From an uncultured Dokdonella sp. (GTDB taxonomy: Bacteria > Pseudomonadota > Gammaproteobacteria > Xanthomonadales > Rhodanobacteraceae): a stretch of DNA of 64,000 nt. The position numbers were made by a program, and so were the translations under genes. Positions 6,952-57,733 of the stretch are shown one piece after another. Under the pieces are notes generated by a model. That model saw only the letters and a list, made by a program, of their open reading frames with translations, was not told the DNA's origin and searched no databases. The stretch is from contig CAKSZY010000012.1 of the NCBI GenBank assembly GCA_934526015.1, positions 5,730 to 69,729 on the forward strand. Reading direction: 5' to 3'. Each line of letters opens with the position of its first letter. The first letter of the stretch is position 1.

Positions 6952-8073
6952 ATGCAGGCTTTCCGTTCACGATCGCGTGGCGTGGCGATCGGCCTGGCCC
7001 TCCTCGCCTTCAGCGCGATCGCCGACGAAGCGGTGGCTCCCGCCGCAAGCGACCCGATGGCAAAGCCGGCCGAACGCCAGCCGCATGCGAGCAGCGCCCT
7101 CGTGCTCGACCTCGCCTTCGCCGGTGCCGGGCGCATCGTTGCGGTCGGCGAGCGGGGCCACATCCTGTTGTCCGACGACGGCAGGGCCTGGCGCCAGGCC
7201 GAAGTGCCCCTGCGCAGCACGCTGACCGCGGTCAGCGCGGTCGGCAGCGACGTCTGGGCGGTCGGCCACGACGGTGTCGTCCTGCACAGCGGCGATGCCG
7301 GCGAGAGCTGGGAGATCCAGCGCCGCGATCCGTGGACCGAATCCACCGACGGCAGCGAACACGACCTGCGCCAGGGCGTGCCGCTGCTCGACGTGCTGTT
7401 CAGCGACGCGCGCAATGGCGTCGCCATCGGCGCCTACAGCCTCATGCTGACCACCGCCGACGGCGGCCGCAGCTGGAGTGCCGGACGCATCGAGGTGATC
7501 GGCGAGGCCCAGGCCGGCGCGGCGACGGCCGATGACGACGACCTCGCCGAGGACGCCGAAGACGGTCCCGGCAGCGACATTTTCACCGCCGAGGAACTGG
7601 CCATCGGCCAGGAAAGCGACCCCCACCTCAATGCCATCGCGCGCACCGGCAGCGGCGCCTTCGTCATCGTCGGCGAGCGCGGCGCGGTGTTCCGTTCGCG
7701 CGATGGCGCGCGTTGGGAGCGTTCGCAGCTGCCCTATGACGGCTCGATGTTCGGCGTGATCGGCTACGAAGGCGATCGCGTGCTGGCCTTCGGCCTGCGC
7801 GGCCACGTGTTCGAGTCCGACAACCTCGGCGTCGACTGGCGCGAAGTCGATACCGATACCGAACTCAGCCTGATGGGCGGCGCGGCGCTGGGCGACGGCG
7901 GCGCCGTCATCGTCGGCGCCAACGGCACCGTGCTGCGCCGTGCCGGCGCCGATGCCGCGCTGGCACTGACCACCCACACCGCAGCCGGCGTGATCGCCGC
8001 CGTGCTGCCGGCCGCCGATGGCGCCCTCGTCGTCGCCGGCGAGCACGGCGTCGACCGCTACCCGAACGAATGA
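6952..8073 (+). CDS. YCF48-like / BNR-repeat beta-propeller protein, exported
   Basis: The 373-residue product has a short signal peptide (GVAIGLALLAFSAIA) and repeats of the type VAVGERGHILLSDDGRAW, VWAVGHDGVVLHSGDAGESWE and VIVGERGAVFRSRDGARWE. These are typical of the YCF48/photosystem-II-assembly-factor-like propeller, named after the chloroplast Hcf136 protein. Outside phototrophs such proteins commonly sit next to MMPL/RND exporters with DUF1302 and DUF1329, as here, and presumably act as a periplasmic partner of the pump. An acidic insert (about residues 188-215) interrupts the propeller. ATG 6952 is preferred over 6904 because AGGGTG precedes it and the signal peptide starts there. 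Confidence 0.85.
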   Translation: MQAFRSRSRGVAIGLALLAFSAIADEAVAPAASDPMAKPAERQPHASSALVLDLAFAGAGRIVAVGERGHILLSDDGRAWRQAEVPLRSTLTAVSAVGSDVWAVGHDGVVLHSGDAGESWEIQRRDPWTESTDGSEHDLRQGVPLLDVLFSDARNGVAIGAYSLMLTTADGGRSWSAGRIEVIGEAQAGAATADDDDLAEDAEDGPGSDIFTAEELAIGQESDPHLNAIARTGSGAFVIVGERGAVFRSRDGARWERSQLPYDGSMFGVIGYEGDRVLAFGLRGHVFESDNLGVDWREVDTDTELSLMGGAALGDGGAVIVGANGTVLRRAGADAALALTTHTAAGVIAAVLPAADGALVVAGEHGVDRYPNE

Positions 8074-8083
8074 CGGAATCCCG

Positions 8084-10588
8084 ATGAGCGCAGGCAGCCC
8101 CGCCCACCGTCCACCGAGCGCGTTCCGGCGCGCCGCCGAGTCCCTCGTGTTCGGCAACCGGCCGATCGTGCTGGCGCTGTTCGCGCTGGCGACGATCGTG
8201 TTCGCCTTCTACGCCGCGCAGCTGCGCGTCGATGCGGGATTCAAGAAGCAGATCCCGCTCAAGCACGAGTACATGCAGACCTTCATCGACTACGAACAGG
8301 AGTTCGGTGGAGCCAACCGCGTGCTGATCGCGGTGATGGACAAGAACGGCGACATGTTCAACCTGCCGTTCTTCCGGACGATGGAGAACATCACCCAGGA
8401 CGCGAAGAACATCGACAGCGTGGACGAGGCGCGCGTGCGCTCGATCTTCACGCCGAACGTGCGCTTCGTCGAGGTGGTCGAGGACGGTTTCGCCGGCGGC
8501 AACGTCATCCCGCAGGAGTTCACCCCGAACAGCGAGGGCTTCGAGAGCTCGCCCGAGCAGTTCGCCACGATCAAGGCCAACATCGAGAAGGCCGGCATCG
8601 TCGGCCGCCTGGTCGCCAAGGATTTCTCCGGCGCGATGATCTGGGTCGACCTCGTCCCGGAGAATCCCGAGCAGGGCGTCAAGGTCGACTACAACCGCAT
8701 CGCCGAACAGCTCGACGACATCCGCGCCAAGTACGAGAACGAGCACACCACCGTCGCCATCATCGGCTTCGCCAAGATGGTCGGCGACATCACCGCCGGC
8801 GCGAAATCGGTGATCTGGTTCTTCGTCCTCACCATCGCCTTCACCTGGCTGCTGCTGTTCATCTATTCCTCCTCGGTCAAGCTCGCGACCCTGACCGTGT
8901 TCTGCGCGCTGGTCTCGGTGGTGTGGATGCTCGGCGCCCTGCGCCTGCTCGGCTTCGGCATCGATCCGATGAACATGCTGACGCCGTTCCTGATCTTCGC
9001 CATCGCGGTCAGCCACGGCGAGCAGATGATCAACCGCTTCCGCGGCGAGATCTTCTTCGGCGGGCTGGAGGAAGGCACGCCGGAAGAACTCGCCACGCGC
9101 AGCGGCGTCGATCCGCTGACCGCCGCGCGCAATGCCTTCCGCGCCATGCTCGTGCCCGGTGCGGTCGCCCTGATCGCCGGCTGCGTCGGCTTCGCCGCCA
9201 TCCTCGTCATCCCGATCCGCATCATCTTCGAGCTGGCGATCACCGCCACCGTCGGCGTCGCCCTGACCATCCTCACCGACCTCGTCCTGCTGCCGGTGCT
9301 GCTTTCGTACACGAAGCTGCGCAACCTGCCGCGCAAGCGCGCCTACCGCCTGCGCCAGCTGACCCAGTTCGACAAGCTGTGGACCGTGCTGGCCCGCTTC
9401 AGCAAGCCGGTGCCGGCGGCGATCATCCTCGTCATCGGCATCGCCGCATGGTTCTTCGCCGAGCGCCACGGCGAGAAGGTCATGATCGGCGACGCGCAGA
9501 TGGGGGTCGCCGAACTGCGCCCCGACGCGCGCTACAACCGCGACGCCATCCTCATCAGCGACAAGTTCGCCCTCGGCGTCGACATCCTCAACGTCATCGC
9601 CGAGGCGGCGCCGTCCGCCTGCACGATGAGCTACCCGACCATGGAACTGGTCGACCGCTTCGCCTGGCACCTCGGCAACGTCGAGGGCGTCGCCCAGGTG
9701 ATGACCCTGCCGATGGCGGCGAAGATCGTCAACGCCGGCTGGAACGAGGGCAACATCCGCTGGCGCGTGCTGCCGCGGGACGCCGACACCCTGCGCCTCG
9801 CCACCCAGGGCTTCGAGACCGACAGCGGCCTGCTCAACGCCGACTGCAGCGCCATGCCGATCATGGCCTTCCTGACCGACCACCGGGCGACCACGATCGA
9901 CCGCGTGGTCGGCGCGGTGAAGCAGTTCCGCGACGACAACAAGGCCTGGGCCGGCGGCACCGTCAACCTGCGCGAGGTGCTGGCCGAAAAGGAAGCCGCC
10001 GGGATCGCGCCGGAACCCGGCGAGCCGTTCGTCAACCTGCGCCTGGCCACCGGCAACGTCGGCGTCATGGCCGCGATCAACGACGAGGTCCGTGCGGTCA
10101 AGCGCCTGATCCTCTACATGCTGTACGCGGCCGTGTTCCTGATGTGCCTGCTGAGCTTCCGCAGCGCGCTGTCGGCACTGTGCATCGTGCTGCCGCTGGT
10201 GCTGGTGACCGAGCTCGGTCATGCATTGATGGTGTATCTCGACATCGGCATGAAGGTGAACACGCTGACCGTGGTCGCCCTCGGCGTCGGCATCGGCGTC
10301 GACTACGCCATCTACATCTTCGCCCGCATGCGCGAGTCGCTGCTCGCCGGCAAGCCGCTGACCGAAGCCTACTTCGCCTCGCTGAAGACCACCGGCATTG
10401 CCATCTTCTACACCGCCCTCACGCTCGCCGTCGGCGTGTTCACCTGGGTGTTCTCCGACCTCAAGTTCCAGGCCGACATGGGTGTCATGCTGACCTTCAT
10501 GTTCGTCGTCAACATGCTCGCCGCGATCATCTTCCTGCCGGCCCTGTGCCGCTGGCTGTTGCGGCCGCTGGAGAAGGTGACGACCTGA
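8084..10588 (+). CDS. RND superfamily (MMPL-type) exporter
   Basis: The 834-residue protein shows the RND plan: one N-terminal helix (VLALFALATIVFAFYAAQL), a large periplasmic loop, a block of five to six helices (from about residue 240), another helix plus loop (from about 440), and a final helix block. It is a single-chain MMPL/patched-type transporter that moves hydrophobic compounds using the proton-motive force. The acidic GIGVDYAIYIFARMRES segment in the second block matches the family's proton-relay helix region. It starts 10 bp after the YCF48 gene and ends the operon. With DUF1302, DUF1329 and the lipoprotein it makes a complete inner-to-outer-membrane route. The cargo is unknown. 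Confidence 0.9.
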   Translation: MSAGSPAHRPPSAFRRAAESLVFGNRPIVLALFALATIVFAFYAAQLRVDAGFKKQIPLKHEYMQTFIDYEQEFGGANRVLIAVMDKNGDMFNLPFFRTMENITQDAKNIDSVDEARVRSIFTPNVRFVEVVEDGFAGGNVIPQEFTPNSEGFESSPEQFATIKANIEKAGIVGRLVAKDFSGAMIWVDLVPENPEQGVKVDYNRIAEQLDDIRAKYENEHTTVAIIGFAKMVGDITAGAKSVIWFFVLTIAFTWLLLFIYSSSVKLATLTVFCALVSVVWMLGALRLLGFGIDPMNMLTPFLIFAIAVSHGEQMINRFRGEIFFGGLEEGTPEELATRSGVDPLTAARNAFRAMLVPGAVALIAGCVGFAAILVIPIRIIFELAITATVGVALTILTDLVLLPVLLSYTKLRNLPRKRAYRLRQLTQFDKLWTVLARFSKPVPAAIILVIGIAAWFFAERHGEKVMIGDAQMGVAELRPDARYNRDAILISDKFALGVDILNVIAEAAPSACTMSYPTMELVDRFAWHLGNVEGVAQVMTLPMAAKIVNAGWNEGNIRWRVLPRDADTLRLATQGFETDSGLLNADCSAMPIMAFLTDHRATTIDRVVGAVKQFRDDNKAWAGGTVNLREVLAEKEAAGIAPEPGEPFVNLRLATGNVGVMAAINDEVRAVKRLILYMLYAAVFLMCLLSFRSALSALCIVLPLVLVTELGHALMVYLDIGMKVNTLTVVALGVGIGVDYAIYIFARMRESLLAGKPLTEAYFASLKTTGIAIFYTALTLAVGVFTWVFSDLKFQADMGVMLTFMFVVNMLAAIIFLPALCRWLLRPLEKVTT

Positions 10589-10786
10589 CCTTGTCGGTTC
10601 CGGGTGCGAGCGTCGTCGAAGCCCCGCGGCGCCGCATCCGGTGGCGCTGTGCATGGCAAGGCCGTCTCGGGCGCGGGCTCCACCGTGCGCGAGCCCCCTG
10701 CATCACGCTCGAAGCCGAGCGTCCAATGCCGAACTTGCCGCCGAGTGAAGCCGGTGCCGGCATGAGGACTCCTTGCGTCCCGCGTC

Positions 10787-10816
10787 TTGCAATCCTGCCG
10801 GGGGGGGGGGTACGGT
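10787..10816 (+). promoter_or_regulatory. Promoter with 11-G homopolymer spacer (candidate phase-variable)
   Basis: TTGCAA (10787-10792) and TACGGT (10811-10816) are 18 bp apart. Eleven consecutive G residues (10800-10810) fill the end of the spacer. Slipped-strand changes in this tract would change the -35/-10 distance, as in known phase-variable promoters. The rest of the 266-bp gap after the RND gene shows no gene. The -10 hexamer is a weak consensus match. Confidence 0.5.
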
Positions 10817-10854
10817 GTCCGAACAGGGGCCAACGTTGAAATGGAGATTCGTGA

Positions 10855-11334
10855 ATGAAGATCGTGAATGCTTTGGCGGCGATGGGTTTTGCTTCAGCGC
10901 TTTCGATGGCCCTGCCCAGCCTGGCAGCCAGTGATGGCATCTTGTTCGAGGATGGAGACACCACGTTCTGGGGACATTCCGATGGAATCCGGTGCACGGG
11001 CTTGTGCATCAAGTCCGAGCGTCGCGGCAACAGCGTGATATCGCAGGTGTACGATCCGGCCGGCAGGTTGCGCCAGACAACCATGCACGATCTGGTGTCC
11101 GAACGAAGTGCAAAGGCGAGTGCCGGATTGATCGAGGTGCGCTTGCCGGCTCCTGGTGTGGTTGAAGTCAACGAACCCAACCCGCCACCGGGCGGCACCG
11201 GACCCGTCACGGTTACACAAGTCTTCAACACGACGACTGGATGGACCGTCATCGTGTTCACTTTCCACTTCTCGAACGGGCTGTTGGTGCGCGTCGATTA
11301 CTCCTCGACGATATTCAACAACATGCCCGAATGA
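10855..11334 (+). CDS. Small secreted protein of unknown function
   Basis: I do not recognise this 159-residue protein. It starts with a clear Sec signal peptide (NALAAMGFASALSMALPSLAA) and the mature part is polar and beta-rich. It has a Cys pair in RCTGLCIK, a proline/glycine linker (NEPNPPPGGTGP) and a C-terminal strand pattern. The ATG at 10855 has a GGAGA site 7 bp upstream. Codon use is noticeably less GC-biased than in the neighbouring genes, hinting at recent acquisition or relaxed selection. It is alone in its transcription unit, behind the poly-G promoter and before a GC-rich hairpin. Confidence 0.75.
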   Translation: MKIVNALAAMGFASALSMALPSLAASDGILFEDGDTTFWGHSDGIRCTGLCIKSERRGNSVISQVYDPAGRLRQTTMHDLVSERSAKASAGLIEVRLPAPGVVEVNEPNPPPGGTGPVTVTQVFNTTTGWTVIVFTFHFSNGLLVRVDYSSTIFNNMPE

Positions 11335-11458
11335 CGTCGTTTGGATGAGGCCATGGTGCGCCTCGTTCACACGAGTCATTTTTCCGGATGTCGGTCGCCG
11401 GCCATTTCCCGCAGGTGTGTGGCGCTCGGCGATTTCGACTTTCCTGACACGTGCCTGG

Positions 11459-11478
11459 GCGGCCCCGGACGGGGCCGC
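11459..11478 (+). terminator. GC-rich stem-loop downstream of the secreted-protein gene
   Basis: GCGGCCCC (11459-11466) pairs with GGGGCCGC (11471-11478) across a GGAC tetraloop. Only CTTG follows rather than a T-run, so termination strength is uncertain. It separates the plus-strand gene from the convergent minus-strand genes. Confidence 0.5.
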
Positions 11479-11520
11479 CTTGCGGCAAACCCGCGTCCTC
11501 CATGAGCCCCGGAGCGAGGA

Positions 11521-11856
11521 GCCTACGGCACCGGCATCGCCGGTGGCGAATACGCGAGCGTCGTGCCGAGGAACCACAGCAGGAACAGCACGATCGGCAG
11601 GTGTACGACGAGCTGCACGAACGAGTAGCCGACGATGTCGCGCGCGCGCAGGCCGATCACGCCGAGCAGGGGCAGCATCCAGAACGGGTTGATGAGGTTC
11701 GGCAGCGCCTCGGCGGCGTTGTAGATCTGCACGGCCCAGCCGAGGTGGTACTGCAGGTCGTTCGCGGCCTGCATGACGTAGGGCGCCTCGATGATCCACT
11801 TGCCGCCGCCGGACGGCACGAAGAAGCCGAGGATCGCCGAGTAGATGCCCATGATC
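11521..11856. repeat. 336-bp direct repeat, copy A (duplicated atoE 3' end)
   Basis: This segment repeats 12590-12925 at an offset of 1069 bp. I could find only two mismatches, both near the left end (in the last codons of the gene). Identity starts abruptly at GCCTACGG and ends abruptly after ATGATC. The two copies bracket the vapBC pair. Confidence 0.95.
11523..11856 (-). pseudogene. Truncated atoE-like C-terminal fragment
   Basis: On the minus strand this encodes the last 110 or so residues of the short-chain fatty acid transporter found intact at 12592-14013, from IMGIYSAILGFFVPSGGG to the stop codon. One residue differs (Ala for Val near the C-terminus). The frame stays open upstream to 11903, but that part (MDGDHLNLRG...) is unrelated and has no ribosome site. 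A fragment with only two or three of the roughly twelve membrane helices is not expected to transport. It is the remnant made when the 3' end of atoE was duplicated. Confidence 0.9.
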
Positions 11857-11884
11857 CGGAGCAGGCTCCGCGCGCCACGCAGAT

Positions 11885-12292
11885 TCAAGTGGTCGCCGTC
11901 CACAGCCGCAACGGCACATGCCGCGCCGCATGCGTGAAGTCGCTGTCGGTCGTGAGCAGCGTCAGGTCGTGGGCAATGGCCAGTTGCACGATCAGGGCGT
12001 CGGCGCCAGCGAGTTGTACGCCTCTTTCGCGCAGCGATCGTTGCAGCCGCGCTGCAGCGATATGGTCGTCGAGCGTGGCGGCGACGAAGTGCAGCGCGGC
12101 AAATACTTCGGCCACGGCGTCGGCGTCTCGCGACGACGCCAGGCCGTAGAACAGTTCCTGCGCGATGACGCCCGACACGGCAACCTGGTCGTCGCCGCCG
12201 AGGAAACGTTGCAAGGCTTCGACTTCAGGTTCGGATGCGGGGCCGTTCCTGCGGAACAGCAACGACCAAACGCTGGTATCGACCATCACCAT
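11885..12292 (-). CDS. vapC: VapC-family PIN-domain ribonuclease toxin
   Basis: The 135-residue protein is a canonical PIN-domain endoribonuclease. The four acidic metal-binding residues are visible: Asp5 (VDTSVW), Glu46 (AQELFYGL), Asp98 (GADALI) and Asp116/Asp118 (TTDSDF). Family members cut tRNA or rRNA and stop growth unless bound by VapB. It follows vapB with only a 3-bp gap, as is usual for translationally coupled TA pairs. The start could be ATG 12292 or ATG 12286. The gene lies between the two copies of the atoE 3' end, suggesting that it arrived together with that duplication. Confidence 0.93.
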   Translation of the reverse strand: MVMVDTSVWSLLFRRNGPASEPEVEALQRFLGGDDQVAVSGVIAQELFYGLASSRDADAVAEVFAALHFVAATLDDHIAAARLQRSLRERGVQLAGADALIVQLAIAHDLTLLTTDSDFTHAARHVPLRLWTATT

Positions 12293-12295
12293 GGT

Positions 12296-12517
12296 TCAGC
12301 GGCGTGCATGCTTGCGGTCGCGCGCGGTCCGGTCGGCCTTGTGCTCGTAGCCAGGATCCCATGTCAGCTTGCCGACATGTTCGAGGATCCTGGCCTGCTC
12401 GCGACGGGCGATGAACTCCTGCAAGGCACGGGTGACCGCCGCCTTCTTGGTTTTCTCTCCGCTCAGGGCAAAGGCGTGTTCCAGCAAGTCCGGGTCGAGG
12501 GCGAGATTGGTGGCCAT
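12296..12517 (-). CDS. vapB: VapB-family antitoxin
   Basis: The 73-residue protein starts MATNLALDPDLLEHAF and continues ALSGEKTKKAAVTRALQEF. This matches the type II VapB antitoxins whose N-terminal half is a ribbon-helix-helix-like DNA-binding unit; the charged C-terminal tail (HKADRTARDRKHARR) would wrap the toxin. ATG 12517 is chosen because a perfect AAGGAGG lies 7 bp upstream; an upstream in-frame start at 12544 has none and would run through that site. VapB is expected to neutralise the neighbouring VapC and repress its own operon. Confidence 0.9.
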   Translation of the reverse strand: MATNLALDPDLLEHAFALSGEKTKKAAVTRALQEFIARREQARILEHVGKLTWDPGYEHKADRTARDRKHARR

Positions 12518-12525
12518 CGGGGGCC

Positions 12526-12576
12526 TCCTTACACAAGGACTCACACAACACTACGCCGGTCCAGCATTGGCGGCAA
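12526..12576 (-). promoter_or_regulatory. vapBC promoter with overlapping inverted repeat
   Basis: On the minus strand TTGCCG (12576-12571) and TAGTGT (12553-12548) are 17 bp apart, giving the TA pair its own promoter inside the inserted segment. An inverted repeat TCCTT-ACAC-AAGGA (12526-12539) lies between the -10 box and the start codon and overlaps the ribosome site. It is a plausible site for VapB/VapBC autorepression, inferred from position. Confidence 0.45.
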
Positions 12577-12589
12577 GCCGGGCAAGCGC

Positions 12590-12925
12590 GCCTACGGCAC
12601 CGGCATCACCGGTGGTGAATACGCGAGCGTCGTGCCGAGGAACCACAGCAGGAACAGCACGATCGGCAGGTGTACGACGAGCTGCACGAACGAGTAGCCG
12701 ACGATGTCGCGCGCGCGCAGGCCGATCACGCCGAGCAGGGGCAGCATCCAGAACGGGTTGATGAGGTTCGGCAGCGCCTCGGCGGCGTTGTAGATCTGCA
12801 CGGCCCAGCCGAGGTGGTACTGCAGGTCGTTCGCGGCCTGCATGACGTAGGGCGCCTCGATGATCCACTTGCCGCCGCCGGACGGCACGAAGAAGCCGAG
12901 GATCGCCGAGTAGATGCCCATGATC
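12590..12925. repeat. 336-bp direct repeat, copy B (within intact atoE)
   Basis: This is the parental copy of the repeat at 11521-11856. It covers the last 334 bp of the intact transporter gene and two bases beyond. The sequence between the copies (11857-12589) contains vapBC, its promoter and no other gene. Confidence 0.95.
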
Positions 12926-14013
12926 ACGGCGAAGCTGTCGTGCGAGGCGATGCCGACGAAGAGTTCGGCGAGATGGTGGGCGACGGTTTCGCCGCCGACG
13001 CCCTTCGCCGTGGTCAGGATCGCCGCGATCGACCCGTACAGCGGGAACTGGATCAGCACGCCGGTCGTGCTCGGCACCGCGCGGGCGACCGCGTCGAGGA
13101 AATGGCGCGGACGCCAGTGCAGCAGTGCGCCGAGCATGAGGAACAGCAGGTTGTAGGTGTTGAGCCCGGAGATGGCGACGATCGCCGGCTTGGTGCTGAA
13201 CTCGTGCACGAGCCAGCCGGCCGCGAGCACGGCCAGCAGCACGGTCAGGATCGGGCTGTATTCGAGCCATTCGCCGGGACGCGAACGCACGGTCGGCGCG
13301 CGCTCCGGCTCGTCGAGATCGACCGCACAGGCGCGCGCGTCGCGGGCGTTGGCCGCGGTCGGTGCGGTCATGAAGGCGACCGCCAGCGAGACCAGGATCA
13401 GCACCGCGGTCAGGCCGATCGACTGCCAGAGGAAGATCGTTTCGGAAAACGGAATGACGCCGGTGATCGGCAGCAGGCCGGGCGGAATGCTGGCCGGGTT
13501 CGCCTGCAGTTGCGCGGCGGAGGAGGACAGTCCCATCGCCCAGACGGCACCGAGGCCGAGATAGGCCGCCGCGCCGGCGGCGCGGTAATCCATGCCGAGC
13601 GATTCGCGGCGACCGAGCGCGCGCACCAGGAGGCCGGCGAAGACGAGGCTAAAACCCCAGTTCAGCAGCGAGGCGAGCATGCTGACGAGGCCGACCCAGC
13701 AGACCGCGCCGCGGCCCGTTTTCGGCACGCGCGCGAGTCGCTCGATGATGCGTGCGGCCGGTGCCGAGCTCGCCACCACGTAGCCGCCGATGACGACGAA
13801 GGCCATCTGCATGGTGAACGGGATCAGGCTCCAGAAGCCGTCGCCGAAGGCCTTGGCGACCGCGCTGGCCGGCGCGCCGGCGATGAACGCTGCGACGGCG
13901 ACGACCACGACGGCGAGCGCGGCGAACACCCAGGCATCGGGGAACCAGCGCTCGGCCCAGGCCGAGCAGCGCAGGGCGAAGCGTGCGCTCCAGTGGTCGC
14001 GTGAAGGATCCAT
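12592..14013 (-). CDS. atoE: AtoE-type short-chain fatty acid transporter
   Basis: The 473-residue protein has around twelve hydrophobic helices and matches the AtoE/short-chain fatty acid transporter family, which imports acetoacetate, butyrate and similar acids. Recognisable segments are FWSLIPFTMQMAFVVIGGYVVA, the GLLPITGVIPFSETIF loop and the FVPSGGGKWIIEAPYV motif late in the protein. ATG 14013 is used because it starts the conserved sequence and follows GGAG; the frame stays open further upstream without family similarity. The 3' end was duplicated together with vapBC, leaving this copy full-length. Its start lies 11 bp downstream of the stop of the VIT-like gene, so the two may be co-transcribed. 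Confidence 0.9.
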   Translation of the reverse strand: MDPSRDHWSARFALRCSAWAERWFPDAWVFAALAVVVVAVAAFIAGAPASAVAKAFGDGFWSLIPFTMQMAFVVIGGYVVASSAPAARIIERLARVPKTGRGAVCWVGLVSMLASLLNWGFSLVFAGLLVRALGRRESLGMDYRAAGAAAYLGLGAVWAMGLSSSAAQLQANPASIPPGLLPITGVIPFSETIFLWQSIGLTAVLILVSLAVAFMTAPTAANARDARACAVDLDEPERAPTVRSRPGEWLEYSPILTVLLAVLAAGWLVHEFSTKPAIVAISGLNTYNLLFLMLGALLHWRPRHFLDAVARAVPSTTGVLIQFPLYGSIAAILTTAKGVGGETVAHHLAELFVGIASHDSFAVIMGIYSAILGFFVPSGGGKWIIEAPYVMQAANDLQYHLGWAVQIYNAAEALPNLINPFWMLPLLGVIGLRARDIVGYSFVQLVVHLPIVLFLLWFLGTTLAYSPPVMPVP

Positions 14014-14024
14014 CTCGACTCCGC

Positions 14025-14723
14025 TCAGTTGAACACGCGGCCAAAGGCGTGGCCGATCAGCGCGGTGGCGGTCATCGCCAGCGAACTCCACAGCAGCACG
14101 CGCACGGCGCCGCGGAGGGCGCGGGCGCCACCGGCGCGGGCCGCCAGCGCGCCGAGCACACCGAGGCAGACCAGCGACGCGGCCATCACCCCGGCGACCA
14201 CGGCATGCGCCGGCAGCAGCAGGAAGGTCAGCAACGGCACCAGCGCGCCGACGGAAAAGGCGAGCGCGGAGGCGGCCGCGGCCTGCAGCGGACGCGCGAC
14301 CAGTTGCGGGGTGATGCCGATGTCGTCGCGCGCATGCGCGGCGAGGTCGTCGTGGGCGGTGAGTTGCTCGGCCACCTGACGGGCCAGCGCCGGATCGAGT
14401 CCGCGTCCGATGTAGATGGCGGTCAGTTCGTCCAGCTCGCGTTCGGGGTGTTCGTCGAGGGCGCGACGTTCGATCGCGAGGTCGGCCTTCTCGGCGTCGG
14501 CCTGGGAACTGACCGAGACATACTCGCCGGCGCCCATCGACAGCGCGCCGGCGACCAGCGCCGCAGTGCCGGCCAGCAGCACGTCGTTGTGACCGGCCGC
14601 GGAGGCGGCGACGCCGACGATCAGGCTGGCGGTCGACACGATGCCGTCGTTGGCGCCGAGCACGGCCGCGCGCAACCAGCCGGAACGACCGGACTTGTGG
14701 GTTTCCGCATGACCTCCTCGCAC
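14025..14723 (-). CDS. VIT1/CCC1 family iron/manganese transporter
   Basis: The 232-residue protein matches the VIT family: the start region HAETHKSGRSGWLRAAVLGANDG is followed by IVSTASLIVGVAA, MGAGEYVSVSSQ and a cytoplasmic ferritin-like Glu-rich loop (ERRALDEHPERELDEL), then three more helices. These proteins move Fe2+ or Mn2+ across a membrane, detoxifying excess metal. The start is uncertain. GTG 14723 has AGGGGAG upstream and gives the family's usual N-terminus, while GTG 14777 is also in frame. A stronger ribosome site precedes an out-of-frame ATG at 14710, which is reported as a finding. Confidence 0.88.
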   Translation of the reverse strand: MRGGHAETHKSGRSGWLRAAVLGANDGIVSTASLIVGVAASAAGHNDVLLAGTAALVAGALSMGAGEYVSVSSQADAEKADLAIERRALDEHPERELDELTAIYIGRGLDPALARQVAEQLTAHDDLAAHARDDIGITPQLVARPLQAAAASALAFSVGALVPLLTFLLLPAHAVVAGVMAASLVCLGVLGALAARAGGARALRGAVRVLLWSSLAMTATALIGHAFGRVFN

Positions 14724-14837
14724 ATCGACTCCCCTGGCGGCCTCCCGCGCGCCGTTGCCGTTACCCCTGCGCTGCACAGTCGGCCATCGCGAGGATTCCC
14801 GACCGGCAGCCTTCCCCCTTCCCCCTCGCCGCTTCCA

Positions 14838-16225: not shown

Positions 16226-16736
16226 GCGTTGCGCGGGGCGAAGGGAAAGCTGGCGTCGTCGCAAGAATGCAGGGCCGCACGCTGGTGATAGCGCATGCCT
16301 GTCCCCGCTGCGCGGGGCGAAGGGAAAGCTGGCGCTGTCGCAAGAATGCAAGGCTGCACTCTGGAAAATGCGCATGCCTGTCCCTTCTCCCCGTGGCGAC
16401 GGGGAGAAGGTGCGGCGGCAGCCGCGGATGAGGGGCGCTTTCGTGCTTCTGCAGCAGCCGATGAAGTGGCGCGTGCGCGTTCCTGCAGCGTCGATTGCGG
16501 CCGACCTCCCACGGCCCCTCATCCGGTGCTGCCGCACCACCTTCTCCCCGCTGCGCGGGGCGAAGGAGGGCTGGCGCGTTCGCAAGAACGAAAGGCTGCA
16601 TTCTTATGAAAGCGCATGCCTGTCCCTTCTCCCCGCTGCGCGGGGCGAAGGAAGGCGGGCGCTGTCGCAAGAATGCCGGGCTGCACTCCGAGGCAAGCAC
16701 ATGCTGGTCGCCTCTTCCCGCTCCGCCCTGCGGGGC
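16226..16736. repeat. Cluster of hairpin-forming intergenic repeats
   Basis: The 648-bp gap between the J-domain gene and purC holds no convincing gene. It contains four direct copies (cores near 16230, 16309, 16552 and 16637) of a unit built on CCCCGCTGCGCGGGG, then GCGAAGG, a GTCGCAAGAATGC-like segment and GCGCATGCCTGTCCC. Each copy can fold into a short GC hairpin. Short open frames here are by-products of the repeats. Confidence 0.85.
16400..16551. repeat. MITE-like inverted repeat pair
   Basis: An arm at 16400-16435 (CGGGGAGAAGGTG to GGATGAGGGG) is mirrored with a few mismatches by 16516-16551 (CCCCTCATCC to CACCTTCTCCCCG), enclosing about 80 bp. The structure resembles a small non-autonomous element sitting in the repeat cluster. 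No transposase is present here. Confidence 0.7.
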
Positions 16737-46600: not shown

Positions 46601-47008
46601 GTGTTCGATGTCCTGCTGCGCGCCGGCGCCGACCACGCCCGCGCCAATCCGGCCGGGCAGACCGCCGTGCTGCTGCTGCTCGGCGCGCGCGCCGAGCCGG
46701 GTGCGCCGTGCGATGCCCAGCACCTCGGCCAGCTCGTCCGCGTGCTGATTGCCGCCGGTGCCGGCCTCGGGGTCAGCGACCAGCGCGGTGTCAGCGCCCT
46801 GCACGCCTGCGCGATGCACGGCCTGCTCGGCGTCGCCCGCCTGCTGAAGGCGCACGCCGCCCCGCTCGACCTCGTCGACGGCTTCGGTCGCAGCCCCGGC
46901 GAAGTCGCCGCCCTGCTCGGCTACGTCGACGTCGCCGCCGAACTCGGCGTGGTCCGCCAACCGGTGCCGAGTGCACGCCAGACTTTGCGCAGGCGGGTTA
47001 CGGATTAG
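43607..47008 (+). CDS. Large membrane protein with ankyrin repeats
   Basis: The 1133-residue protein has an N-terminal membrane domain with five or six helices (residues 10-230). From about residue 265 to the end it is a long run of ankyrin repeats of about 33 residues, recognisable by GxTxLxxAAxxGxxxxVxxLLxxGAD-type text such as GNTALHHAALCADPVVAALL, DRTALMAAALAGHVHVAEAL and GGTALMMAAAFGLPHVIEAL. The repeats would lie in the cytoplasm as a protein-binding scaffold; no enzyme motif is seen. ATG 43607 is chosen since it starts the first helix segment. The last codon and stop (GAT TAG) run into the heptamer repeat array. Confidence 0.88.
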   Translation: MSKPAAARPRSLLVALARFLPALGVFALALPFAHPLILVALLAGNALMLTAICAGIGFDMDARFARSVARRGLAGLVLLTLYTLFVAALLAAPAWWLLHEPSLTAALVLSAAGLLAVLALWRLWPAFALPFVWDDAYPEDAGGSWLLAALRRSLAFARHLTGEHELFFSHGLPAALAAFAACAGALALAALAPTLAEETRVALLAGYALTVVPLAQLVIATRCSHALLADARRHRVRARREGAAAEAAADGPPASLPAGIGPLELGATLLAAARSGQVELALAALHRGADPGTLPLAGERDQRSVLIHAVLLPDLRLLRGLIAKGVDVNRVHGGMSALVAATRGSYQGRPDAVMTLLANGADARVADAEGNTALHHAALCADPVVAALLLDAGALVDAVNREGQTPLGVACANANWVLAEFLLDRGARSEVEHAQPALLLAAAASDDDDRGVRLLLKRKARPDTRGPLDRTALMAAALAGHVHVAEALLAGGAGVDLADRHGTTALMEAARAGAMPVVNALAKRKADPDRVDVTGRSALIIACTSRLASEDTVRALLALGADRGIVGGDGKRALDHAVASGRWHIVALLDPAYPLPSSLDAAAPVEAANAAHLVDALRFGHWNIAETFRSGIVHWPPTELAGIHLALAEEGLQPARDWLCNAGLALDAQLADGRSLFEALLGLLPSSAQALAGLVARGTPVGGVAVVARVLAAVPANGGDELRRLAADLVERGADVGGRMAGDTHAIHLAAALGETGLVATLLARGTDANLRDARGRMPLHFAMKARGMAAVDVTRALIRHGADPDRAAANGETPLGLALARGERELVNWLDWPRWRLPQRALLGADLPAAAASGDVEAVDKLLALGLHVDAVDAQGATALIRAAGSGYAALVARLLDAGADPALAAHSGATCLSAAIAARREAVVRTLLERGVAPDQRLPGGGTALMMAAAFGLPHVIEALLAHGADVNAHDERGNTPLLAAAQAAFDSRDSNTWMRVFDVLLRAGADHARANPAGQTAVLLLLGARAEPGAPCDAQHLGQLVRVLIAAGAGLGVSDQRGVSALHACAMHGLLGVARLLKAHAAPLDLVDGFGRSPGEVAALLGYVDVAAELGVVRQPVPSARQTLRRRVTD

Positions 47009-47180
47009 GGGCTGGGGACCAGGGGCTAGGGGCTAGGGACTAGGGACTAGGGACTAGGGACTAGGGGCTAGGGACTAGGGGCTAGAGGCTAGAGGCTAGA
47101 GGCTAGCGGCTGGGGGCTGGGGGCTGGGGGCTGGGGGCTAGAGGCTAGGGGCTGGGGGCTGGGGGCCAGGGGCTGGCTCA
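47006..47180 (+). repeat. Heptanucleotide repeat array, left arm
   Basis: About 175 bp consist of variants of a 7-bp unit (CTAGGGG, CTAGGGA, CTAGAGG, CTGGGGG). The first unit contains the stop codon of the ankyrin gene. The G-rich strand has many runs of three to five G. Confidence 0.95.
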
Positions 47181-56805: not shown

Positions 56806-56830
56806 GTCACGTCCGCTGTCCGATGGGATC

Positions 56831-56932
56831 GAAGCAAAGCCTGAAACGAAGCAAAGCCTGAAACGAAGCAAAGCCTGAAACGAGGCAAAGCCTGAAACGA
56901 GGCAAAGCCTGAAACGAGGCAAAGCCTGAAAC
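56831..56932. repeat. Six tandem 17-bp repeats
   Basis: GAAGCAAAGCCTGAAAC occurs three times, followed by three copies with GAGG in place of GAAG, all head to tail. Three 9-bp units (ACGGAGCAC, ACGGAGCAC, ACGGAGGAG) then follow at 56933-56959. The tract lies just upstream of the GT39-like start codon. Confidence 0.95.
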
Positions 56933-57733
56933 ACGGAGCACACGGAGCACACGGAGGAGAAGCGGATGAATGATTCGCGTTGCCTTCCGTGCTTCGTGCC
57001 CTTGGTGTTTCAGGCTTTCGCTCCGACATCGCTCGAAGGCGAAAGATTGAAGCACGGAAGGCACGAAAGACGAAGAAAAGTCCTTCACCGACGGGCTTGT
57101 CCTCGGTGTGCTCCGTGTGCTCCGTGTTCCAGGCTTTTGCTCCGCCAGCGGTCGAAGGCGAAAGATTGAAGCACGAAGGGCACGAAAGACGCGAAGAAAA
57201 GTCCTTCACCGACAGGCTTCTCCTCGGTGTGCTCCGTGTGCTCCGTGTTCCAGGCTTTCGCTCCGCCACCGGTCGAAGGCGAAAGATTGAAGCACGAAGG
57301 GCACGAACGACACGAAGAAAAGTCCTTCACCGACGGGCTTCTCCTCGGTGTGCTCCGTGTGCTCCGTGTTTCAGGCTTTCGCTCCGCCAGCGGTCGAAGG
57401 CGAAAGATTGAAGCACGAAGGGCACGAAAGACGCGAAGAAAAGTCCTTCACCGACAGGCTTCTCCTCGGTGTGCTCCGTGTGCTCCGTGTTCCAGGCTTT
57501 CGCTCCGCCACCGGTCGAAGGCGAAAGATTGAAGCACGAAGGGCACGAACGACACGAAGAAAAGTCCTTCACCGACGGGCTTCTCCTCGGTGTGCTCCGT
57601 GTGCTCCGTGTTTCAGGCTTTCGCTCCGCCAGCGGTCGAAGGCGAAAGATTGAAGCACGAAGGGCACGAACGACGCGAAGAAAAGCCCTTCAACGACGGG
57701 CTTGTCCTCCGTGTGCTCCGTGTTTCAGGCTTT
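56921..57733. repeat. Satellite-like array of 121-bp units bracketed by a 27-bp inverted repeat
   Basis: Units begin at 57106, 57227, 57348, 57469 and 57590, each 121 bp, with a diverged unit before them (about 56985-57105) and a partial one after. Units alternate between two variants, so 57106-57347 and 57348-57589 are nearly identical 242-bp dimers. The whole is enclosed by a perfect 27-bp inverted repeat (56921-56947 and 57707-57733). No real gene lies in 56806-57762; open frames here repeat with the array. Confidence 0.93.

What the first reader, a model, noticed from the sequence alone, without database searches (positions are those of the whole stretch)
11521..12925. A vapBC toxin-antitoxin pair sits between two nearly identical copies of the atoE 3' end
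The 336-bp repeats (11521-11856, 12590-12925) differ at only two positions, and the 733 bp between them carry vapB, vapC and their promoter. The intact transporter gene is preserved, while a dead 3' fragment remains beyond the cassette. This is what results when a circular or donor DNA carrying vapBC plus a piece of atoE recombines into the gene, or when an insertion brings its own copy of the gene end. The mechanism would place an addictive cassette without host cost and could be reversed by recombination between the repeats.
Basis: partly seen in the sequence, partly recalled or inferred. Interest (0 to 1): 0.75.

Follow-up and report, generated by a model that had tools for sequence, protein, structure and literature searches.

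The report
Toxin-antitoxin insert with duplicated target gene end
A bare vapBC toxin-antitoxin pair sits between two copies of the end of a neighbouring gene, and a screen suggests that such pairs often insert this way, which bears on the open question of how toxin-antitoxin genes move between genomes.

Summary
Two 336-bp copies of the atoE 3' end (11521-11856, 12590-12925) differ at 2 positions and enclose 733 bp holding only vapB and vapC. atoE stays intact; the far copy is a fragment.

Nine of ten genomes of the nearest genus could be read here: none has atoE beside this site, and in five the flanking genes MMPL and VIT1 are neighbours. No single-copy empty site was found.

The arrangement recurs. 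Of 117 PIN-confirmed vapBC loci, 16 have direct repeats joining left and right flanks and 3 inverted ones; of 600 random positions, 3 have direct ones. By my unblinded reading 8 of the 16 (7 site clusters, one ambiguous) are duplicated gene ends. PhdYeFM loci: 1 clear case of 69; E. coli ccd: none.

Best explanation: insertion of a bare TA module with a long target duplication, known for restriction-modification systems (passages), while a 2020 review calls TA movement unelucidated. The donor-piece model is less favoured, not excluded. New variant of a known kind.

The parts
12592..14013 (-). atoE, short-chain fatty acid transporter, intact (473 aa from ATG 14013, my start choice)
   Evidence: PF02667 1.4e-87; P0001 is the window's own protein, 473 aa
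12590..12925 (-). repeat copy B: last 334 bp of intact atoE (stop included) plus 2 bp
11521..11856 (-). repeat copy B': detached atoE 3' fragment, 2 differences
11857..12589 (-). inserted segment V, 733 bp, vapBC
   Evidence: no Rfam family at gathering threshold in 10500-14200
12296..12517 (-). vapB antitoxin (mechanical ORF 12296-12544; ATG start at 12517 is my reading)
   Evidence: PF09957 7.6e-15
11885..12292 (-). vapC PIN toxin; D5, E46, D98, D118 invariant in 19 aligned sequences, its own included
   Evidence: PF01850 5.7e-16, NF047959 5.9e-26, alignment A1
10855..11334 (+). ORF of 159 aa beyond B', no Pfam match; a 65% homologue sits beside MMPL in relative G414
14025..14777 (-). VIT1 family gene, right border of the block absent from relatives
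   Evidence: PF01988; next to MMPL in G215, G262, G413, G416, G266
8018..10588 (+). MMPL transporter, left border of the block
   Evidence: PF03176; 93% aa in G215, 87% in G262

Best explanation
A bare ~0.7-kb vapBC module was inserted at the 3' end of atoE by an event that duplicated 336 bp of the target, giving A-B-V-B'-C: intact gene, TA module, truncated extra copy, original downstream DNA. It works like the 'insertion with long target duplication' described for restriction-modification systems, here with a type II TA module. No recombinase was seen in the segment, so the insertion step was probably illegitimate (for example end joining at a long staggered break, or a replication template switch that re-enters upstream). 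Because the target is duplicated, the gene survives. Recombination between the repeats would delete the module; if the toxin is active that loss is punished, so the structure persists and the extra copy decays. Shown: the arrangement, its open frames, its recurrence at other vapBC loci above controls. Inferred: the joining chemistry, toxin activity and retention by addiction.
For: Anatomy. Recurrence: 16 of 117 PIN-confirmed vapBC loci have direct left/right flank repeats (>=35 bits), 3 of 117 inverted, 6 of 13,572 cross-locus pairs; 3 of 600 random 600-bp cores in 20 stretches from genomes with TA hits; Fisher 16/117 against 3/600 p=6e-11, and 8/117 against 3/600 p=4e-5. Gene-end duplications by my reading: L135 hsdM 5' end 106 bp 88%; L331 cmr2 5' end 133 bp 86%; L363 ABC-F 3' end 69 bp 97%; L348 3' end of an unnamed ORF cut by the contig end, 60 bp 97%; L233 clc channel 3' end 60 bp 83%; L210 glycosyltransferase 3' end 131 bp 69%. 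Repeat lengths vary, and I saw no shared end sequence among the inserts. Differences look nearer neutral; the window's fragment carries the off-consensus residue. None of loci L001-L129, nearly all atoE loci, encodes a VapB or VapC relative at tblastn E<=1e-8, so no ready-made atoE-vapBC donor was seen.
Against: No single-copy empty site for the window and none resolved for L363. Both mismatches lie within 27 bp of the module-side end (about 0.013 by chance, computed after seeing them), as expected if that end came from a donor. PhdYeFM loci: 2 of 69 direct hits, one clear (or 1 of 67, a 19-bp match, with a wider core), and none at E. coli ccd, so it is not shown to be general to TA systems. 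The controls are random positions, not other acquired genes, so TA specificity is not shown. The codon test is dominated by two loci (31 of 46 differences). L210 at 69% could be a fragment of a different homologue.
Confidence: 0.6

Rival explanations
1. Homologous integration: a circular or linear donor carrying vapBC plus a piece of atoE recombined into atoE (single crossover, or homology on one side and an illegitimate join on the other).
For: Gives the same A-B-V-B'-C order; both mismatches cluster at the module-side end of the repeat.
Against: Needs a donor in which vapBC already adjoined atoE. No listed place in the order (398 genomes) or family (233 genomes, overlapping) searches spans both, though those lists are cut; none of L001-L129 has VapB or VapC by tblastn. 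The fragment carries the off-consensus residue. Differences over seven loci are not mainly synonymous.
Confidence: 0.18
2. The whole block (atoE, vapBC, fragment) was imported together from another lineage, and the insertion happened there.
For: atoE is absent beside this site in nine genus relatives; nearest AtoE proteins are 90% identical and of unknown context.
Against: Concerns where the event took place, not how; 99.4% identity of the repeats suggests it was recent.
Confidence: 0.12
3. Assembly artefact: the 336-bp repeat was created or misplaced by the assembler.
For: No reads or assembly data were available, and no genome is held for the window.
Against: The copies differ at two sites and have unique flanks; similar structures occur in other genomes, some of them fragmented assemblies too.
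Confidence: 0.05
4. Integron cassette or integrase-driven element that restores the gene end it enters.
For: Two screened loci (L345, L346) have attC-like flanks (my reading).
Against: The window's repeats are atoE coding sequence, and the 733 bp hold vapB and vapC with no room for an integrase.
Confidence: 0.02

Closest known systems
Insertion with long target duplication of restriction-modification systems (Nobusato 2000, Furuta 2010; both known here only through passages in PMC3874152 and PMC3031569)
   Same: Bare gene unit, long and variable (order of 100 bp) target duplication; cargo is addictive
   Different: Cargo is a type II vapBC pair, not restriction-modification genes; no sister-strain empty site in hand
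VapBC type II toxin-antitoxin systems (PF09957 antitoxin, PIN toxin)
   Same: Gene order, both domains, conserved acidic residues
   Different: Flanked by a duplicated target gene end; activity not tested
E. coli ccd islet between folA and apaH
   Same: Bare TA islet between core genes, present in only part of the species
   Different: Replaces intergenic DNA and has no flanking duplication in the isolate tested
Elements that integrate into a gene end and restore it, such as e14 at icd (recalled)
   Same: Intact gene plus displaced fragment of its end
   Different: Those encode an integrase; this segment does not

Membership tests
VapBC type II TA | VapB antitoxin domain | tested here: met
   PF09957 7.6e-15, above cut-off; no NCBIfam match
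VapBC type II TA | PIN toxin with conserved acidic residues | tested here: met
   PF01850 and NF047959 above cut-off; D5, E46, D98, D118 invariant in 19 sequences; their catalytic role is recalled
VapBC type II TA | Toxin is toxic and neutralised by the antitoxin | not testable with these tools
   needs expression
Insertion with long target duplication | Insert flanked by long direct repeats of the target | tested here: met
   336 bp, 99.4%, end of the adjoining gene
Insertion with long target duplication | Single-copy empty site in a close relative | tested here: inconclusive
   genus relatives lack atoE at the locus
Insertion with long target duplication | Restriction-modification cargo, as described | tested here: not met
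   cargo is vapBC, so it works like that class and is not a member as described
Integron cassette | attC site at the insert ends | tested here: not met
   repeats are atoE coding sequence; read by eye, no attC search was run
Integrase-borne gene-end element | Encodes a site-specific recombinase | tested here: not met
   733 bp hold vapB and vapC

The most novel reading that the evidence does not exclude
PF09957-type vapBC pairs are bare mobile units that commonly enter genomes with long, variable target duplications at gene ends, and their addiction protects the flanking repeats from collapse for so long that the spare copy diverges by 12-30% (L135, L331, L233, L210) without the module being lost.
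Probability: 0.4. Interest if true: 0.72.

Novelty: new variant of a known kind. Interest (0 to 1): 0.55.

Why it matters
A 2020 review states that how TA systems move and integrate is unelucidated (PMC7167474, passage). A recurring scar around vapBC gives a sequence signature that can be counted, dated and tested. Long-lived direct repeats around a deletable module would also be natural evidence that chromosomal vapBC is addictive where it sits, since recombination should otherwise remove it.

Tried and rejected
Scan of genome contigs with AtoE kept 80 loci at 69-77% identity, mostly Pseudomonas. Plasmid search gave 10 records at 60-80% identity; where a feature is named it is TIGR00366, that is atoE-like. 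Seven loci with vapB or vapBC like the window's were read first: one (L135) was flanked. A viral-contig scan with a VapC alignment matched 64 stretches and confirmed none. PF09957 in the order of G663 gave mainly places already listed. E. coli ccd as an outside test was negative.

Direct-repeat hits not counted as gene ends (8 of 16): L324 (tandem repeat), L193 (dispersed repeat), L340 and L261 (also strongly inverted), L345 and L346 (attC-like), L260 and L272 (intergenic repeats). Counted: L135, L331, L363, L348, L233, L210, and L216 with L208 (one cluster). The L216/L208 cluster is ambiguous: G500 (L208) carries two diverged full PGPGW genes around the module and G497 (L218) one. This sorting was mine and not blind. 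L226 was dropped (32 bp, no PIN hit).

Denominators: 167 VapB loci are those fetched from the listed places; several weak places were not fetched or entered. Of 167, 121 had a PIN hit beside them and 117 enough flank. Same-cluster pairs were left out of the cross-locus hits but not out of the 13,572. The window is not among the 117. In one search the TA pair was not masked in two of the 20 background stretches (L446, L450), which can only raise the background. The 3 background hits were not classified. Codon counts: p=0.098 against one third, 7e-6 against an assumed 75% third-position share.

Full report
Observation. Two copies of 336 bp, 11521-11856 and 12590-12925, differ at two positions and enclose 733 bp. 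On the minus strand the order is atoE (PF02667), vapB (PF09957), vapC (PIN, NF047959), then the atoE 3' fragment. The repeat runs from inside atoE to 2 bp past its stop codon.

Locus history. No genome is held for the window. Relatives were reached through other handles. In G215 and G262 the run ORF5463, ORF6904, MMPL, VIT1, Mpo1 is conserved (MMPL 93% and 87% aa), and the MMPL and VIT1 matches end about 110 and 190 bp apart. The genus search covered 10 genomes; nine could be read at MMPL (G415 could not be placed). None of the nine has an AtoE match in the stretch read; MMPL and VIT1 are direct neighbours in five (G215, G262, G413, G416, G266), and G414 has a 65% homologue of ORF159 next to MMPL, followed by AAA and VWA genes to the contig end. 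So the stretch 10589-14024 differs from its relatives as a whole, atoE included, and a clean empty site for the vapBC event alone was not found.

A second case. Seven loci with vapB or vapBC similar to the window's were read. In L135 (G472) the pair lies between an intact hsdM gene (PF02384, PF12161) and a 106-bp copy of its 5' end, 88% identical. The architecture is the same: intact gene, module, truncated spare copy.

Screen. PF09957 was sought in the family (35 of 233 genomes with hits), the phylum (51 of 398) and the order (61 of 398); these sets overlap. A first count found flanking direct repeats at 11 of 167 fetched VapB loci, 1 of 70 PhdYeFM loci and 23 of 3,680 random positions, the latter from 8 distinct repeats. 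A second test compared 500-bp left and right flanks of 117 PIN-confirmed loci in 109 clusters: 16 direct, 3 inverted, 6 of 13,572 cross-locus pairs. Random 600-bp cores in 20 stretches from genomes with TA hits gave 3 of 600 direct and 3 of 600 inverted. PhdYeFM gave 2 of 69 direct, one of them a 48-bp copy of an M61 peptidase gene end, or 1 of 67 with a wider core.

What the repeats are. By inspection 8 of the 16, in 7 clusters, are gene-end duplications: hsdM and cmr2 5' ends, ABC-F, clc, glycosyltransferase and one unnamed ORF 3' ends, and the ambiguous PGPGW cluster. Two more look like integron attC sites, and the other six are dispersed, tandem, palindromic or intergenic repeats. The inserts measured for L331, L135, L363, L348 and L233 are 676-804 bp long, with 57-163 bp before the VapB match and 2-86 bp after vapC, and I saw no shared ends.

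Duplicate or import. Live/dead differences over seven loci (window, L331, L135, L363, L394, L348, L233) fall 13, 13 and 20 on codon positions 1, 2 and 3. This is nearer to neutral decay than to divergence of two working genes, and L331 and L135 supply 31 of the 46. In the window the intact copy has V where 15 of 18 listed relatives have V, and the fragment has A. Against this, both window mismatches sit at the module side, as a donor end would predict.

Mechanism. The simplest account is insertion of a bare module with duplication of the target. The joining step is unknown. Persistence of direct repeats around a deletable module, in some loci with 12-30% divergence, suggests that loss is selected against. 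That is inference; toxin activity was not tested.

Known background. [quoted passage not shown] also PMC3031569, passages). The original papers (Nobusato 2000, Furuta 2010) were not read; PMC2853133 is not held. A 2009 TA review cites Nobusato, in the passages seen, for restriction-modification systems (PMC2654758). A 2020 review says TA integration mechanisms remain unelucidated (PMC7167474, passages). Searches for TA systems with target duplication, direct repeats or islet insertion listed no paper that I could see describing this for vapBC. Only titles and abstract openings were read for most, several lists were cut (for example 25 of 898), and Mine 2009 and Ramisetty 2016 were not held.

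Limits. Unnamed, partly fragmented genomes; no reads; no donor; controls are random positions and not other acquired genes; E. coli ccd is a negative case.

Noticed in passing
window 10589-14024: The stretch between MMPL and VIT1 is variable in the genus: absent in five relatives read, ORF159 homologue plus AAA and VWA genes in G414 (L174).
   Followed up: partly
window 57005-57723: Six copies of a 121-bp tandem repeat, 94% matching, beside a 17-bp repeat array at 56830-56932.
   Followed up: no
window 47006-47174: A heptamer array, TAGGGGC, about 24 copies.
   Followed up: no
window 16230-16726: Two groups of 79- and 85-bp repeats within a stretch that also matches its own reverse complement.
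   Followed up: no
L260 242-526 and 2160-3260: vapBC sits inside a copy of an intergenic sequence whose nearly uninterrupted copy lies at 242-526 of the same contig stretch: an apparent empty-site paralogue.
   Followed up: partly
L345 605-1451, L346 1359-2172: vapBC between attC-like sites, so some relatives may travel as integron cassettes.
   Followed up: partly
L467 3667-5005: In one E. coli isolate the folA-apaH site holds a short ccdA and two other genes in place of ccdAB.
   Followed up: no
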